Position numbers and translations under genes: made by a program
In this document: in pieces, positions 15,161 through 35,533 of the stretch
Position numbering within the stretch: position 1 is the first letter of the stretch
Layout: each line of letters begins with the position of its first letter
NCBI GenBank assembly: GCA_012965425.1
Contig: DTSI01000038.1
Location: 3,214 to 38,824 of the forward strand
Length of the DNA: 35,611 nt
DNA from: Methylococcaceae bacterium
GTDB lineage: Bacteria; Pseudomonadota; Gammaproteobacteria; Methylococcales; Methylomonadaceae
Direction: 5' to 3'
Notes under the pieces: model-generated
What the model saw: the letters and a program-made list of their open reading frames with translations, nothing else
What the model was told of the DNA's origin: nothing
Database searches by the model: none

Positions 15161-15278
15161 AACCTGGCAGTTCCCTACTTTCACATGGATAAATCCACAC
15201 TATCATCGGCGCTAAACGGTTTCACTTCCGAGTTCGGAATGGGATCGGGTGGGGCACATTCGCTATGGCCACCAGGCA
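15161..15278 (-). rRNA. rrf: 5S ribosomal RNA
   Basis: The - strand begins with TGCCTGG, contains CCGAACTCGGAAGTGAAAC and AGCGCCGATG, and ends with GTAGGGAACTGCCAGG, as in gammaproteobacterial 5S rRNA. The ends pair as helix I. Length about 118; ends are good to a few bases. Confidence 0.97.
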
Positions 15279-15413
15279 AATCGTTTTGGCAAAATATCCT
15301 TATCTCACCGTAACAGTCCTCATCAATCATCCTTTGAAGAACTGTCGGAATCTGTAAACTGTTCAAGCTAAGCTAATATTATCAACTTCACCCAAACTAC
15401 TTGGGTGTTATAT

Positions 15414-18308
<2,895 letters not shown>

Positions 18309-18556
18309 ATATAACCCCAACCAGTCTGGTTGTGACTATATAATCGCTGACAATTTCGCTTTGCTTGAGAACTCACCAATAACTTCTTGCATACAGTCCG
18401 ACTCATCATCAAACTAAACACAATCCATTACTGCTTCATTCTTTCTTTATTACAGTTTACAGATTCCAAATTTTTAAAGAGCAATTGTTGAGTTTCCTCA
18501 CCAATTCTATAAAAGCTATTTCCGTAACTTAATCCGTTACGTAACCCTTATAGAGT
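18309..18556 (-). other. Spacer between tRNA-Ala and 23S rRNA
   Basis: A 248-base transcribed spacer containing no further tRNA. It carries the upstream arm of the 23S processing stem and a boxA-like antitermination site (18474-18482). Confidence 0.8.
18474..18482 (-). promoter_or_regulatory. boxA-like antitermination site in the 16S-23S spacer
   Basis: The - strand reads GCTCTTTAA followed by AAA, matching the core of the rRNA boxA that binds NusB/S10 in E. coli. The same core occurs in the operon leader at 20600-20608. Confidence 0.7.
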
Positions 18557-18632
18557 TGGTGGAGCCAGGGAGGATCGAACTCCCGACCTCCTGCGTGCAA
18601 GGCAGGCGCTCTCCCAGCTGAGCTATGGCCCC
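18557..18632 (-). tRNA. alaT: tRNA-Ala (anticodon UGC)
   Basis: A 76-base cloverleaf on the - strand with GGGGCCATAGCTCAGCTGGG at the 5' end, anticodon TGC in CCTTGCACG, the T loop GTTCGATCC, and CCA encoded at the 3' end. It is the second tRNA of the 16S-23S spacer. Confidence 0.98.
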
Positions 18633-18750
18633 TCTATTGCGTGTAAACAAAAAAACCACTACCGTGGCCCCTTCATCTAGCAAGCGTCCCGTCCCAGAAG
18701 ATGTCCAAAAACTTTCCACAAAATAGTCTTTCAACCACGTTGCGCAAAAT

Positions 18751-18827
<77 letters not shown>

Positions 18828-18845
18828 AGGCTCATTGCTTTATTC

Positions 18846-18861
18846 AATCAAAATAATTTGT
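18846..18861. repeat. 3' arm of the 16S processing stem
   Basis: AATCAAAATAATTTGT is the exact inverted copy of 20577-20592. Allowing a one-base bulge and G-U pairs, the helix extends about ten more pairs inward. It brackets 16S rRNA and is the expected RNase III site. Confidence 0.8.
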
Positions 18862-18897
18862 TGTGAGTACTAAAATAGGCGTGCGCCTAACTTTTTG

Positions 18898-20436
<1,539 letters not shown>

Positions 20437-31525: not shown

Positions 31526-32392
31526 CTAATTTTTAATCGCGCCATACGTTCTTAGTGCTAAACCTGTGGTTTTTTTGATGCAAAAATCTGTCCCCAGCGC
31601 GACTCCTTTGGAGAACCATTGAAAGAGTCGATATTTATTCTGACTTCTATCAATGGGGTAACGGTGAGTCAACTTTGCCATTAATTTTAATGCCCCTGGC
31701 GCACCGTTTATTGCTACAGCATCGACTAAGCAATACATCGCAGCAACACCACTGGGAGGATTCCCCTGACTCCAATGCAAAACAGGATCAGTCGGTGCCC
31801 ATTGCCATGTCCCCGATACCGTCCCAATTATTTCAAGCCAGGTGGTAATAAAAAATGCGGCTAAATAGAGCAAAGGCGACTGTCCCTTAAATAAGAACGC
31901 CACAAAAATGACATATAACAAGGCGCCCGATAGATCTAACCTTTCTGCCAGCAATAAGCCCCAAAGTGACCATAGACCACAAACAATGAGTACAAAAATT
32001 GCTAGCTCTCTGGAATAACGTAAAAACAAACCCGATCGTGATAACGCCACAGCCGTTAAATAAACCATCCCATGTCCTGGCGGCACGTAAGCAGGCACAT
32101 TCTCAAATCGGTAAATGTAACCGCCCAAATACGGGGATGCGAAATTTTCCCCTACGGTAGCAAAAGCCACGGCCACGATGACCTGCATTCTGACTGAAGC
32201 GGTTTCTCCCATCAGTAAACAGAATAGAAAAAACCATGCAAAAACACCTAAAGCATATTGCCATTGGTGACTCCCGCTACCATCAGAAATTAAGCACGCC
32301 GCGACTGAGATAAAGGTAAATACCGCAATAAAATAATCACGATGATTATGTACCGGGTCGTTACTATCATTGGTAAAGGTGTTCAAAATCAT
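31526..32392 (-). CDS. Multi-spanning membrane protein of unknown function
   Basis: I do not recognise this 288-residue protein. It has roughly seven or eight hydrophobic segments between about residues 20 and 235, with short loops. Two loops look conserved in style: FASPYLGGYIYRFENVPAYV with PPGHGMVYL, and SQGNPPSGVAAMYCLVDAVA. The first combines aromatic and Pro/Gly/His residues and could form a site near the membrane surface; two further loops hold TTWLEIIGTVSGTWQWAPTD. The tail (about 250-288) is basic and probably cytoplasmic. It lies 49 bases downstream of the YqaA-like gene on the same strand. Enzyme or transporter cannot be decided. Confidence 0.75.
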   Translation of the reverse strand: MILNTFTNDSNDPVHNHRDYFIAVFTFISVAACLISDGSGSHQWQYALGVFAWFFLFCLLMGETASVRMQVIVAVAFATVGENFASPYLGGYIYRFENVPAYVPPGHGMVYLTAVALSRSGLFLRYSRELAIFVLIVCGLWSLWGLLLAERLDLSGALLYVIFVAFLFKGQSPLLYLAAFFITTWLEIIGTVSGTWQWAPTDPVLHWSQGNPPSGVAAMYCLVDAVAINGAPGALKLMAKLTHRYPIDRSQNKYRLFQWFSKGVALGTDFCIKKTTGLALRTYGAIKN

Positions 32393-32441
32393 TTATAGGT
32401 TCTCACTCTAGTAACTACTTCACTGATGCTTTTATTACGAC

Positions 32442-32873
32442 TTATTCAAACAAAAAAACTACAAAACTATAACGCGCTATTTTCCCTGCTGCAATGGCTA
32501 TGACACCGCCTAACAGCGGCAATCGCAACCAACCTGCTGCAAAACACAACCCGTCACCGACTACTGGTAGCCATGATAATAACAATGCCAAAACACCCCA
32601 CTTCTTTACTATTCCAATCGCTTTTTGTTGCCTTGCCGATAATACTTTTGAGACAGCAAACTTAACACTTGCCCAAGTCCCTAACCACCAAGTTGTTAAC
32701 GCGCCCAAGGTATTTCCCAATGAAGCGACGGCGACTAAAACCCAGACATCATGGTGAGCATCAACCACCAGATAGGCTAATACGGCTTCAGAGCCTCCTG
32801 GCGCAATGGTTGAGGAAATAAAAGCGCTTAGAAATAACCCAAGCACCCCTAAATTTTCAAAAAATAACTCCAT
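32442..32873 (-). CDS. yqaA: YqaA/DedA-type (VTT domain) membrane protein
   Basis: This 143-residue inner-membrane protein resembles E. coli YqaA. An early re-entrant-like segment STIAPGGSEAVLAYLVV is followed by SLGNTLGALTTWWLG, the amphipathic VKKWGVLALLLSWLPVVGDGLCFAAGWLR and a final hydrophobic helix. The VTT/SNARE-associated superfamily includes DedA proteins, several of which move or help recycle lipids across the inner membrane. The function of YqaA itself is not established. Its start lies only four bases from the T-tract of the terminator after the copper genes, so it has no room for a promoter of its own downstream of that hairpin. Confidence 0.87.
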   Translation of the reverse strand: MELFFENLGVLGLFLSAFISSTIAPGGSEAVLAYLVVDAHHDVWVLVAVASLGNTLGALTTWWLGTWASVKFAVSKVLSARQQKAIGIVKKWGVLALLLSWLPVVGDGLCFAAGWLRLPLLGGVIAIAAGKIARYSFVVFLFE

Positions 32874-32876
32874 ATT

Positions 32877-32915
32877 TAAAGAAAAACCCTTGTAACCGAA
32901 TTCGATTACAAGGGT
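32877..32915 (-). terminator. Rho-independent terminator after the copper protein pair
   Basis: Perfect 10-bp stem ACCCTTGTAA/TTACAAGGGT (32886-32895 with 32906-32915), ten-base loop, then TTTTTC TTT on the - strand. It lies 19 bases beyond the cupredoxin stop. The AAGGG that could serve as a ribosome binding site for yqaA is inside its 3' arm. Confidence 0.88.
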
Positions 32916-32934
32916 CTACATATTGTTTTTGTTA

Positions 32935-33789
32935 TTATTTCTTAAGCGATAACTTCTTAGTTTTATCGAATAACCGTACAAACATTGATTTCAAAAAGCT
33001 AATACTTTTAGCCCCTAAAGCAACCGTACAACCAAACAAAGCAGCAAAAATCTCTGTTATTTGCTTGCCTTTAAAATAATTCGCTAACGCCACTAAAAAT
33101 AAAAGCCCTATCACTAAACCAGCGATCATGTTAACCGTAAAATAAGGTGTATTTTTCTTTTTCGCGGCAACACTGGGATCTACAGGCGGCACATATAAAG
33201 GTACGGTGCGCTTATAAGAGTCTTGCACAACATATGGGGTAACCCCTGGAATACTGGGTAAATCAACATCGCCACCACCTACTTTCATCTGGCCTTTCAT
33301 GCCCTTTTCCATATGCTGGGCTATATCACAATGAACCAAATAAGTCTTTTTCGCGGGTGGCAGAATCAATGTACCCGTCACTTGACCCGGCCCTGTCACT
33401 TCTAAGTGAAACATCCCTTTAGCATAAAGATAACGCGGTAACCCATGAATCATAAATTGATGTCTGATTTTATCTTCATTGATAAAATTAACTGTTAACT
33501 TCGTACATGGCTCGAAATTAAATTCTTGCTGGTCAAAAGCAAACATCCGGCCTGGAAAACGCTTGGCATATTTATGCCCGGCACGAACTGTAATCTCTTT
33601 AGTCCCAGAAATACGACCACAACCATCAGGAACACGGTCAAGATTCTGACCCATGACCATGGCGCCGGCCATATCCATTAAGTGGCCACCGCCATGATCC
33701 ATCATACGATCATGAACAACAATCTTAGCCGCCCACAATGAGGGGCTCACCAGTAAAAGGACTAAAGCAACAGACTTAAAATTAAGCAT
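32935..33789 (-). CDS. Membrane-anchored cupredoxin (blue copper) protein
   Basis: This 284-residue exported protein has a signal peptide (about residues 1-21, ending LWA-A). A Met/His-rich segment follows (about 26-48), then a cupredoxin domain (about 60-175), a Pro-rich linker (about 185-212) and a C-terminal hydrophobic tail of two segments (about 219-237 and 248-262) ending in a basic stretch. Type 1 copper ligands are readable as His110 (IRHQFMIHG), Cys154, His159 and Met164 in VHCDIAQHMEKGM. The ATG at 33787-33789 overlaps the end of the multicopper oxidase gene by eight bases. It could carry electrons to the oxidase or hand it copper. Both roles are inferences. Confidence 0.85.
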   Translation of the reverse strand: MLNFKSVALVLLLVSPSLWAAKIVVHDRMMDHGGGHLMDMAGAMVMGQNLDRVPDGCGRISGTKEITVRAGHKYAKRFPGRMFAFDQQEFNFEPCTKLTVNFINEDKIRHQFMIHGLPRYLYAKGMFHLEVTGPGQVTGTLILPPAKKTYLVHCDIAQHMEKGMKGQMKVGGGDVDLPSIPGVTPYVVQDSYKRTVPLYVPPVDPSVAAKKKNTPYFTVNMIAGLVIGLLFLVALANYFKGKQITEIFAALFGCTVALGAKSISFLKSMFVRLFDKTKKLSLKK

Positions 33790-35533
33790 CTTTTCGCCCT
33801 CCCTTCTTGCCAAACAATGACAACACCCCAGCCAATTTACCTCGAAACACATAAAGTAAAAAGACAACCAATGCTGCGCCTAAGCCTTTCATAAAATTAA
33901 CAACCGGTGTTGCATCCGTTGTTGCTATTAAGGTCGCCGCCACTGTCTTTTTATTTTTATCTTTAGGGGGCGGCACAACAAATGCATCGCCTAAATCTTC
34001 CACATCTTCAGGTTCACCTAAACTATTCCACTCATCCATACCTTGCCAAACAGGTAACTGACGTGAGTGAAAAGCTTGGGTGAAAAATGGCCCTATATCA
34101 CTGCCCTGAACTTTAGGCATACCATTTTCATTTAGATAAGACTTATAAACCAAAGCACTGACATCCCCGCCCGGATTCATGCCATCCGTGGTAATACCTT
34201 TTTCGCGATGATCATGAAAAATCCAGATACCTTCACCATAACTGTGAAAACCATCATCCGTGGTGTTTATGCTGATATCATTACGCTGAACAGGCGCTAT
34301 GTCATAAACATCGCGGGTAATTTGTGCGACCGGATTATGTTCAACCCCGTCATAATGGGTAATCGTTCCTTTGTGACCGTGCGTATGAATAGCGACCATC
34401 TCGCCGGAACTGTTTAACATTCTTAATTTTATATTCTGATTAGGTTCCACGACCACCAATGATTCTCGCATCGTATAAGGGAAAGAACGACCATTCAAAA
34501 CATGGTAATCTTCTGTCGAATCTTGAACATCATATTCACGATTCATTTTTCTTGCAATCAAACGCGGGTCATTAAAGTCTTTGACAATATTACCCAATTC
34601 CTTGTCCATCGCATGATAATGTAGATCATATTCACTGTCATAGTCTGCCAAAACCCCTTTTGAAGGGTGGCGCACTTGACCGGCACCCACATTAAAAGTC
34701 TGCACCCAGTTATTGGGCTTATTTTCTTCAACCACAAACATGCCCACTAAGCCCATACTAATATGAACATGGGGTTGTACGTGACAATGGTAGAGAAATG
34801 AACCGGGTTGACGCGGTTTAATCTCATAGGTTCGACTTTGCCCTGGAAATACAGGTTTCTCACTGGTCTGGGGAATACCATCGTTACCCTCACCTGAGCT
34901 ATCAACAAACTGATGGTCAACACCGTGTAAGTGAATCGTATGCGGAAAATAATGACTGTTCTCTAACTGCAACCAAACAATATCACCCTGCTCAACTCGT
35001 ATCACCGGTGATGGGGCTCTTAACGTAGTGTTCGCTTCATTACTGATAAAACTCTGCGTTGACATCCCCCGGGTCTTCGGTGCAAAAACCCACATAGCCG
35101 GCTGTACACCCGGCGCTATATCGTAAGTCGTACTTAACCCAGCAAAATCGGGTGAATGACCATTTAATTCAAAGACTTCCAATTTGATGATAATAACATC
35201 AGGGTCACCGTCACCGTCTAAATCATCTTTCTTGATAACCGTATCCACTGACAAATGGGTTTCCATCAGTGTTTTCATGGAAATGTTATTAGTCCCCTTA
35301 ACCACAGCGGCAATCAAACTCGGGTTATCCGGCAAACAACGCCTTGACTCTTGAATTTGAACACCTTCAATAACTTGAGCATCACGCCATGTCGGTAAAT
35401 TAAACTTACAAGGCGGCTCCCCCTTACCCGGATCTATCGTGATTGAAGGCGGTAAATCAACAGTCGCTGTTGCCAAAAAAGGCAACAGCACTGCAAATGT
35501 ACCCACCAAACTAATAAACGTTTGTCTTAACAT
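33782..35533 (-). CDS. Two-domain multicopper oxidase, membrane-tethered
   Basis: This 583-residue exported protein starts with a signal peptide (about residues 1-23) and ends with a hydrophobic anchor (about 549-563) and a basic tail. Domain 1 (about 140-275) has HTIHLHG (His198, His201, His203) and YHCHVQPHVHISM (His249, Cys250, His251, His255, Met260). Domain 2 (about 350-470) has HTHGH (His383, His385) and FHDHREKG (His440, His442). These give eight trinuclear-cluster histidines and one type 1 copper site, in domain 1 only, the layout of type C two-domain oxidases such as the Nitrosomonas blue copper oxidase. It should reduce oxygen to water in the periplasm using an unknown reductant. 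DxDGDGDPD at about 104-112 may bind calcium. Confidence 0.92.
   Translation of the reverse strand: MLRQTFISLVGTFAVLLPFLATATVDLPPSITIDPGKGEPPCKFNLPTWRDAQVIEGVQIQESRRCLPDNPSLIAAVVKGTNNISMKTLMETHLSVDTVIKKDDLDGDGDPDVIIIKLEVFELNGHSPDFAGLSTTYDIAPGVQPAMWVFAPKTRGMSTQSFISNEANTTLRAPSPVIRVEQGDIVWLQLENSHYFPHTIHLHGVDHQFVDSSGEGNDGIPQTSEKPVFPGQSRTYEIKPRQPGSFLYHCHVQPHVHISMGLVGMFVVEENKPNNWVQTFNVGAGQVRHPSKGVLADYDSEYDLHYHAMDKELGNIVKDFNDPRLIARKMNREYDVQDSTEDYHVLNGRSFPYTMRESLVVVEPNQNIKLRMLNSSGEMVAIHTHGHKGTITHYDGVEHNPVAQITRDVYDIAPVQRNDISINTTDDGFHSYGEGIWIFHDHREKGITTDGMNPGGDVSALVYKSYLNENGMPKVQGSDIGPFFTQAFHSRQLPVWQGMDEWNSLGEPEDVEDLGDAFVVPPPKDKNKKTVAATLIATTDATPVVNFMKGLGAALVVFLLYVFRGKLAGVLSLFGKKGGRKDA

What the first reader, a model, noticed from the sequence alone, without database searches (positions are those of the whole stretch)
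32935..35533. Overlapping oxidase-cupredoxin pair as a candidate periplasmic copper redox module
Both proteins have signal peptides and C-terminal membrane anchors, and the genes overlap by eight bases, so they are made together. The cupredoxin keeps His110, Cys154, His159 and Met164, the same Cys+5/Cys+10 spacing as the oxidase type 1 site. One module could deliver electrons or copper to the other at the membrane surface. I know of no named system with this two-gene make-up.
Basis: inference. Interest (0 to 1): 0.62.

Follow-up and report, generated by a model that had tools for sequence, protein, structure and literature searches.

The report
Copper oxidase–cupredoxin partners of methane monooxygenase
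This methane-eating bacterium carries two tightly coupled, membrane-anchored copper proteins, an oxidase and a small blue-copper partner, which in other lineages sit directly beside the methane- or ammonia-oxidising copper enzyme and are once fused to a copper chaperone, so they probably handle copper or electrons for that enzyme.

Summary
The pair is real: a complete two-domain multicopper oxidase (MCO, 583 aa) and a single-domain cupredoxin (CUP, 284 aa), both with signal peptide and C-terminal anchor, overlapping 8 bp and ending in a strong terminator. The genome is a pMMO-bearing Methylococcales. Both genes occur in 58 of 61 related genomes, adjacent in 53. In a class-wide draw of 369 genomes, CUP and the methane/ammonia monooxygenase (CuMMO) each occur in 11, together in 10. 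In Methylothermaceae-like genomes and three lineages outside the order this set directly follows the CuMMO genes. In a bacterium without CuMMO, MCO and CUP are one protein carrying a CusF copper-chaperone domain. I read it as a membrane-anchored copper(I)-handling and oxidation module serving CuMMO; electron transfer is the main rival. PmoD beside an MCO was already published; the cupredoxin, the linkage and the fusion I did not find described.

The parts
33782..35533 (-). MCO: membrane-anchored two-domain multicopper oxidase, 583 aa, with an extra ~130-aa N-terminal domain
   Evidence: ORF; Pfam Cu-oxidase_2/_3; closest solved relatives 2ZWN and 3G5W by sequence and fold; all four HxH motifs 31/31
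32935..33789 (-). CUP: membrane-anchored single-domain cupredoxin, 284 aa, with Met/His-rich N-terminal tail
   Evidence: ORF; Pfam Cu-oxidase_2 at 23 bits; cupredoxin fold matches; type 1 ligands conserved
33782..33789 (-). 8-bp overlap ATGCTTAA of the MCO stop and CUP start
   Evidence: sequence
33797..33803 (-). GGGAGGG, Shine-Dalgarno-like site of CUP inside the MCO 3' end
   Evidence: sequence; function inferred
34748..34786 (-). MCO type 1 loop: Cys250, His257 (C+7), axial-position Leu262
34940..34942 (-). MCO His198, first type 1 His (inferred)
   Evidence: 31/31 conserved
33298..33330 (-). CUP type 1 loop: Cys154, His159, Met164
   Evidence: 29/29, 29/29, 27/29
33460..33462 (-). CUP His110, first type 1 His
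   Evidence: 29/29
33652..33711 (-). CUP Met/His-rich tail (residues 27-46)
   Evidence: M+H 27% in the tail versus 10% in the core over 29 relatives
35198..35224 (-). MCO acidic loop DLDGDGDPD (D104-D112), Ca-binding-like
   Evidence: 31/31 Asp at 104, 106, 108, 110, 112; metal inferred
32884..32917 (-). intrinsic terminator after CUP
   Evidence: 15-bp hairpin plus T-rich tail, -21.4 kcal/mol, z -5.7
32442..32873 (-). VTT/DedA-like membrane protein, conserved neighbour behind the terminator
   Evidence: Pfam VTT_dom 32.5 bits, just under the cut-off; near CUP in 66 of 80 named loci
31526..32392 (-). membrane protein of unknown family (c4), conserved neighbour
   Evidence: no accepted Pfam family; near CUP in 61 of 80 named loci

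Best explanation
MCO and CUP are the oxidase and the docking/redox partner of a membrane-anchored periplasmic copper module (pmoD-MCO-CUP) that serves copper membrane monooxygenases (pMMO/AMO). Shown: identity, co-inheritance, tight coupling, the PmoD neighbour in relatives, genomic linkage to CuMMO, a natural MCO-CUP-CusF fusion, a Met/His-rich tail on CUP, and complete trinuclear ligand motifs in MCO. Inferred: CUP's tail and type 1 site receive Cu(I) and/or its electron; CUP (axial Met) passes the electron to the MCO type 1 site (axial-position Leu, expected to have a higher potential), and the trinuclear site reduces O2 to water. The module thereby oxidises Cu(I), sets the copper supply handed through PmoD to CuMMO at the periplasmic face, and protects the membrane from free Cu(I).
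For: CUP/CuMMO association 10 of 11 and 10 of 11 in 369 class genomes (Fisher p 1e-17, or 2e-11 without the own order). pmoCAB-pmoD-MCO-CUP contiguous in L046, L065, L066, L038, L067 and CuMMO genes-pmoD-MCO-CUP in L156, L159 and L184; MCO-CUP upstream of pmoCAB in L062, L063, L064; Pfam AmoC/AMO/Monooxygenase_B confirmed for sampled genes. The gene before MCO matches PmoD 6CPD at 5.8e-24 and is beside CUP in 78 of 80 named loci. Fusion MCO+CUP+CusF_Ec in L179. MDHSQHM repeats in outgroup CUPs and M/H enrichment of the tail. Trinuclear motifs complete. A pmoD homologue next to an MCO in M. capsulatus (MCA2130) falls without copper, as reported in PMC6688271; pmoD disruption causes a copper-dependent growth defect in M. 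trichosporium (PMC6189053).
Against: No copper binding, cuprous oxidase activity or interaction was measured. Alphaproteobacterial-type G595 (same phylum, other class) has pMMO without CUP and only a weak MCO match, and G272 has CuMMO without CUP, so the module is not essential to every CuMMO. G104 has pmoD-MCO-CUP beside a haem-copper oxidase operon and no CuMMO match, and the fusion genome G789 has no CuMMO match. In one amoA-bearing genome (G381) the pair lies upstream of a norCB-like operon. In many freshwater genera the long MCO is no longer next to CUP.
Confidence: 0.5

Rival explanations
1. Electron-transfer module: CUP shuttles electrons between the respiratory chain (or PmoD) and MCO or CuMMO, so the pair is an electron donor to, or an oxygen-reducing relief valve beside, the monooxygenase, with no role in copper supply.
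For: Type 1 sites in both proteins and an inferred downhill Met-to-Leu axial order; matching membrane anchors; linkage to CuMMO operons and once to a haem-copper oxidase operon; the solved N. maritimus MCO carries its own cupredoxin domain (9CCK).
Against: The CusF fusion and Met/His-rich tails point to copper handling; a pMMO-bearing genome of another class lacks CUP.
Confidence: 0.27
2. Nitrogen-oxide handling: the MCO is a NirK/NcgA-like enzyme that removes NO, nitrite or hydroxylamine formed when CuMMO oxidises ammonia, with CUP as its electron donor.
For: 3G5W, a close solved relative, is the blue copper oxidase of the ammonia oxidiser N. europaea; the pair precedes norCBQD-like genes in L155.
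Against: The motif at the type 1 Cys is HCH with four HxH pairs, i.e. a trinuclear oxidase and not a NirK type 2 site; the TIGR02376 NirK cut-off is missed by far, 48.5 against 296.3 bits; the nor linkage was seen in one genome.
Confidence: 0.1
3. General copper-resistance oxidase pair (CueO/PcoA type) that only detoxifies excess copper and is tied to CuMMO merely because these cells hold much copper.
For: Cuprous-oxidase-like traits and MDHS-type motifs.
Against: Found in pMMO-operon synteny rather than with efflux pumps; CopA and CueO family cut-offs missed; the MCO-linked M. capsulatus pmoD is reported to fall without copper alongside the switch away from pMMO (PMC6688271), which fits service to pMMO at least as well as defence.
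Confidence: 0.1

Closest known systems
Type C two-domain multicopper oxidases (N. europaea blue copper oxidase 3G5W; metagenome laccase 2ZWN)
   Same: Two cupredoxin domains with the type 1 Cys in domain 1, four HxH motifs, best sequence and fold match (TM-score by target length 0.79-0.80)
   Different: Extra ~130-aa N-terminal domain with an invariant acidic loop, C-terminal membrane anchor, Leu at the axial position, a dedicated cupredoxin partner gene
PmoD/AmoD of methane and ammonia oxidisers (PDB 6CPD; PMC6189053)
   Same: The gene upstream of MCO in relatives belongs here; PmoD homologues near multicopper oxidases were already noted in that paper
   Different: Ligand pattern of the homologues here is Cx7HxxH, Cx9H or Cx8M, not the CuA set Cx7MxH; the cupredoxin partner is not mentioned in the passages I read
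Nitrosopumilus maritimus multicopper oxidase with C-terminal cupredoxin domain (PDB 9CCK)
   Same: Oxidase plus cupredoxin in one working unit, from an ammonia oxidiser; fold match to our MCO
   Different: One chain there, two separate membrane-anchored proteins here
CueO / PcoA-CopA copper-resistance oxidases
   Same: Multicopper oxidase associated with copper-binding Met/His motifs (here in CUP)
   Different: Two-domain core, misses the TIGR01480 and CueO cut-offs, not seen beside efflux genes
CusF periplasmic Cu(I) chaperone
   Same: A CusF_Ec domain is fused to MCO-CUP in L179
   Different: No CusF domain in the window proteins

Membership tests
Type C two-domain MCO | Type 1 Cys in domain 1 and none in the last domain | tested here: met
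   HCH with Cys250 in 31/31; the second domain has HDH (440-442) without Cys
Type C two-domain MCO | Four HxH motifs of the trinuclear site | tested here: met
   H201/H203, H249/H251, H383/H385, H440/H442 all 31/31
Type C two-domain MCO | Axial Met at the type 1 site | tested here: not met
   Leu262 aligned with the Met in 30/31; alignment-based, no geometry measured
Type C two-domain MCO | Compact soluble ~300-residue chain | tested here: not met
   583 aa with extra N-terminal domain and membrane anchor
Type C two-domain MCO | Homotrimer | not testable with these tools
   -
PmoD (gene upstream of MCO in relatives) | Sequence homology to solved PmoD | tested here: met
   6CPD, E 5.8e-24
PmoD (gene upstream of MCO in relatives) | Two conserved cysteines | tested here: met
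   C37 and C63 invariant in A1
PmoD (gene upstream of MCO in relatives) | CuA ligand set Cx7MxHxnC | tested here: not met
   Cx7HxxH, Cx9H, Cx8M or Cx9M instead
Blue (type 1) cupredoxin (CUP) | His, Cys, His, Met ligand set in a cupredoxin fold | tested here: met
   Ligands 29/29, 29/29, 29/29, 27/29; auracyanin and laccase-domain fold matches, E about 1e-6
Blue (type 1) cupredoxin (CUP) | Binds copper with blue absorption | not testable with these tools
   -
Copper nitrite reductase NirK | TIGR02376 cut-off | tested here: not met
   48.5 against 296.3 bits
CopA/PcoA and CueO copper-resistance oxidases | Family model cut-offs | tested here: not met
   38.7 against 479 and 33 against 525 bits

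The most novel reading that the evidence does not exclude
CUP and MCO, with PmoD, are missing physical accessory components of the pMMO/AMO complex in gammaproteobacterial methane and ammonia oxidisers, loading or gating its copper (or its electrons) at the membrane surface; their loss on purification would help explain the low activity of isolated pMMO.
Probability: 0.22. Interest if true: 0.86.

Novelty: new variant of a known kind. Interest (0 to 1): 0.62.

Why it matters
How particulate methane monooxygenase obtains its copper and electrons is an old open question, and isolated pMMO is less active than whole cells (PMC6189053). An oxidase-cupredoxin pair that is near-universal in gammaproteobacterial methanotrophs, sits in CuMMO operons of several unrelated lineages and is fused elsewhere to a copper chaperone gives a short list of genes to knock out in tractable methanotrophs.

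Tried and rejected
Rejected: NirK, CueO and CopA membership (family cut-offs missed). Rejected: an operon running on into the VTT gene, because of a strong terminator after CUP. Weak idea, not pursued: CUP His115 and His153 occupy the positions of NirK type 2 ligands (from memory of NirK numbering), which could allow an interface copper site; His115 is Pro in the L179 fusion. Profile-profile comparison of CUP with MCO was uninformative (11.5% probability). Plasmid search found no CUP and only distant haloarchaeal and Deinococcus oxidases. Alignment A3 contains a junk 21-residue row I added by mistake; it was replaced by A4 and not used for counts. The neighbourhoods of the short paralogue pairs showed no recurring partner that I recognised.

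Full report
What is there. On the minus strand the window ends with two overlapping genes: MCO (33782-35533, 583 aa) and CUP (32935-33789, 284 aa from its own ATG). They share ATGCTTAA, and CUP has a GGGAGGG site inside the MCO end. After CUP lies a 15-bp hairpin with a T-rich tail (32917-32884, -21.4 kcal/mol, z -5.7), so the transcript probably ends there and the conserved VTT and c4 membrane genes behind it are probably separate. The window is almost a whole contig and stops 78 bp upstream of MCO.

Organism. The genome has pmoA, with pmoC and pmoB beside it. Its nearest named relatives by this locus are Methylococcales MAGs, apparently from oxygen-minimum zones (OPU3_GD_OMZ, 93%; ETNP20_MAG_37, 94%).

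The proteins. MCO matches Cu-oxidase domains, and its closest solved relatives by sequence and by fold are the type C two-domain oxidases 2ZWN and 3G5W. All trinuclear HxH motifs are invariant in 31 relatives. It differs by an N-terminal domain with an invariant DxDxDGDPD loop and by a C-terminal anchor. Its conserved second type 1 His is Cys+7 (31/31) and not Cys+5 (18/31), and the axial position aligns with Leu262 (30/31), which from established knowledge of laccases suggests a high-potential site (inference). CUP is a cupredoxin (fold matches; model pLDDT 85) with His110, Cys154, His159 and Met164 (29, 29, 29 and 27 of 29) and a Met/His-rich tail (27% M+H against 10% in the core). In some relatives outside the order the tail carries MDHSQHM-type repeats.

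The pair is a unit. Both genes occur in 58 of 61 related genomes, adjacent in 53. Sixty-two distinct adjacent pairs, 61 of them within 40 bp or overlapping and one spaced 364 bp, give a distance-matrix correlation of 0.90 with no permutation reaching it (shared species history contributes to this figure). In genome G789 one ORF of 669 aa holds MCO (41% identity), CUP (34%, E 5e-19) and a CusF_Ec copper-chaperone domain (E 4e-13).

The missing third gene. In relatives the gene before MCO is a PmoD homologue: a profile of 18 members finds PmoD 6CPD at 5.8e-24 and nothing else significant. It lies beside CUP in 78 of 80 named loci, against 26 of 80 for MCO, because the long MCO has moved elsewhere in many freshwater genera. 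In the same genus (L023) the PmoD gene directly precedes MCO. In the window's genome its first ~42 codons lie at the end of contig C39, and a near-identical full copy sits on C152 next to pgi, which may explain the assembly break (inference).

Link to CuMMO. In 369 genomes across the class, CUP occurs in 11, the CuMMO A subunit in 11, both in 10 (Fisher p 1e-17, 2e-11 without the own order). pmoC-pmoA-pmoB-pmoD-MCO-CUP(-VTT) is contiguous in five genomes of two families of the order. CuMMO genes-pmoD-MCO-CUP occur in three lineages outside the order (L156, L159; L184). MCO-CUP lies just upstream of pmoCAB in L062, L063 and L064. Pfam confirms AmoC, AMO and Monooxygenase_B in the genes sampled. 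All 51 related genomes with a pmoA match also have the pair; the two high-quality genomes without the pair (G002, G053) have no pmoA match. Exceptions: G104 (no CuMMO match; pmoD-MCO-CUP beside a haem-copper oxidase operon), G272 (CuMMO, no CUP), G595 of another class (CuMMO, no CUP), and the fusion genome G789 (no CuMMO match).

Mechanism. The CusF fusion, the Met/His-rich tails, the PmoD neighbour and the CuMMO linkage favour copper handling for a copper enzyme, with MCO as a likely cuprous oxidase and CUP as the partner that brings it Cu(I) or the electron. Published data agree: a pmoD homologue next to an MCO in M. capsulatus (MCA2130) falls without copper (cited in PMC6688271), and pmoD disruption gives a copper-dependent growth defect in M. 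trichosporium (PMC6189053). Pure electron transfer is the main rival; NOx handling is weaker. None of these activities was measured.

Novelty. The oxidase core, cupredoxins and PmoD are known kinds, PmoD beside MCOs has been noted (PMC6189053, PMC6688271), and an archaeal MCO with its own cupredoxin domain is solved (9CCK). In the library searched (ten searches, open-access papers only) I found no description of this cupredoxin, of the pmoD-MCO-CUP set next to CuMMO genes, or of the CusF fusion. I therefore rate it a new variant of a known kind.

Noticed in passing
L179:8093-10099: Single ORF fusing MCO, CUP and a CusF copper-chaperone domain in a genome without a CuMMO match.
   Followed up: yes
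L155:2347-10024: In an amoA-bearing genome (three amoA copies) the MCO-CUP pair lies just upstream of a norCBQD-like operon.
   Followed up: partly
L158:7545-15406: pmoD-MCO-CUP directly after a haem-copper oxidase operon (COX2 with cytochrome c, COX1, COX3) in a genome without a CuMMO match.
   Followed up: partly
window 35198-35224: Invariant acidic loop DxDxDGDPD in the N-terminal domain of MCO, FG-GAP/EF-hand-like; that domain has no accepted Pfam family.
   Followed up: partly
G000 contigs C38/C39/C152: Two near-identical pmoD copies: one broken at contig ends C39/C38, one complete next to pgi on C152; two more divergent homologues are on C64 and C155.
   Followed up: partly
window 15162-20436: Complete rRNA operon on the minus strand: 16S, two tRNAs, 23S, 5S.
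   Followed up: yes
window 31526-32873: VTT/DedA-like protein and a 288-aa membrane protein without an accepted family follow CUP in most Methylococcales (66 and 61 of 80 named loci); function unknown.
   Followed up: partly
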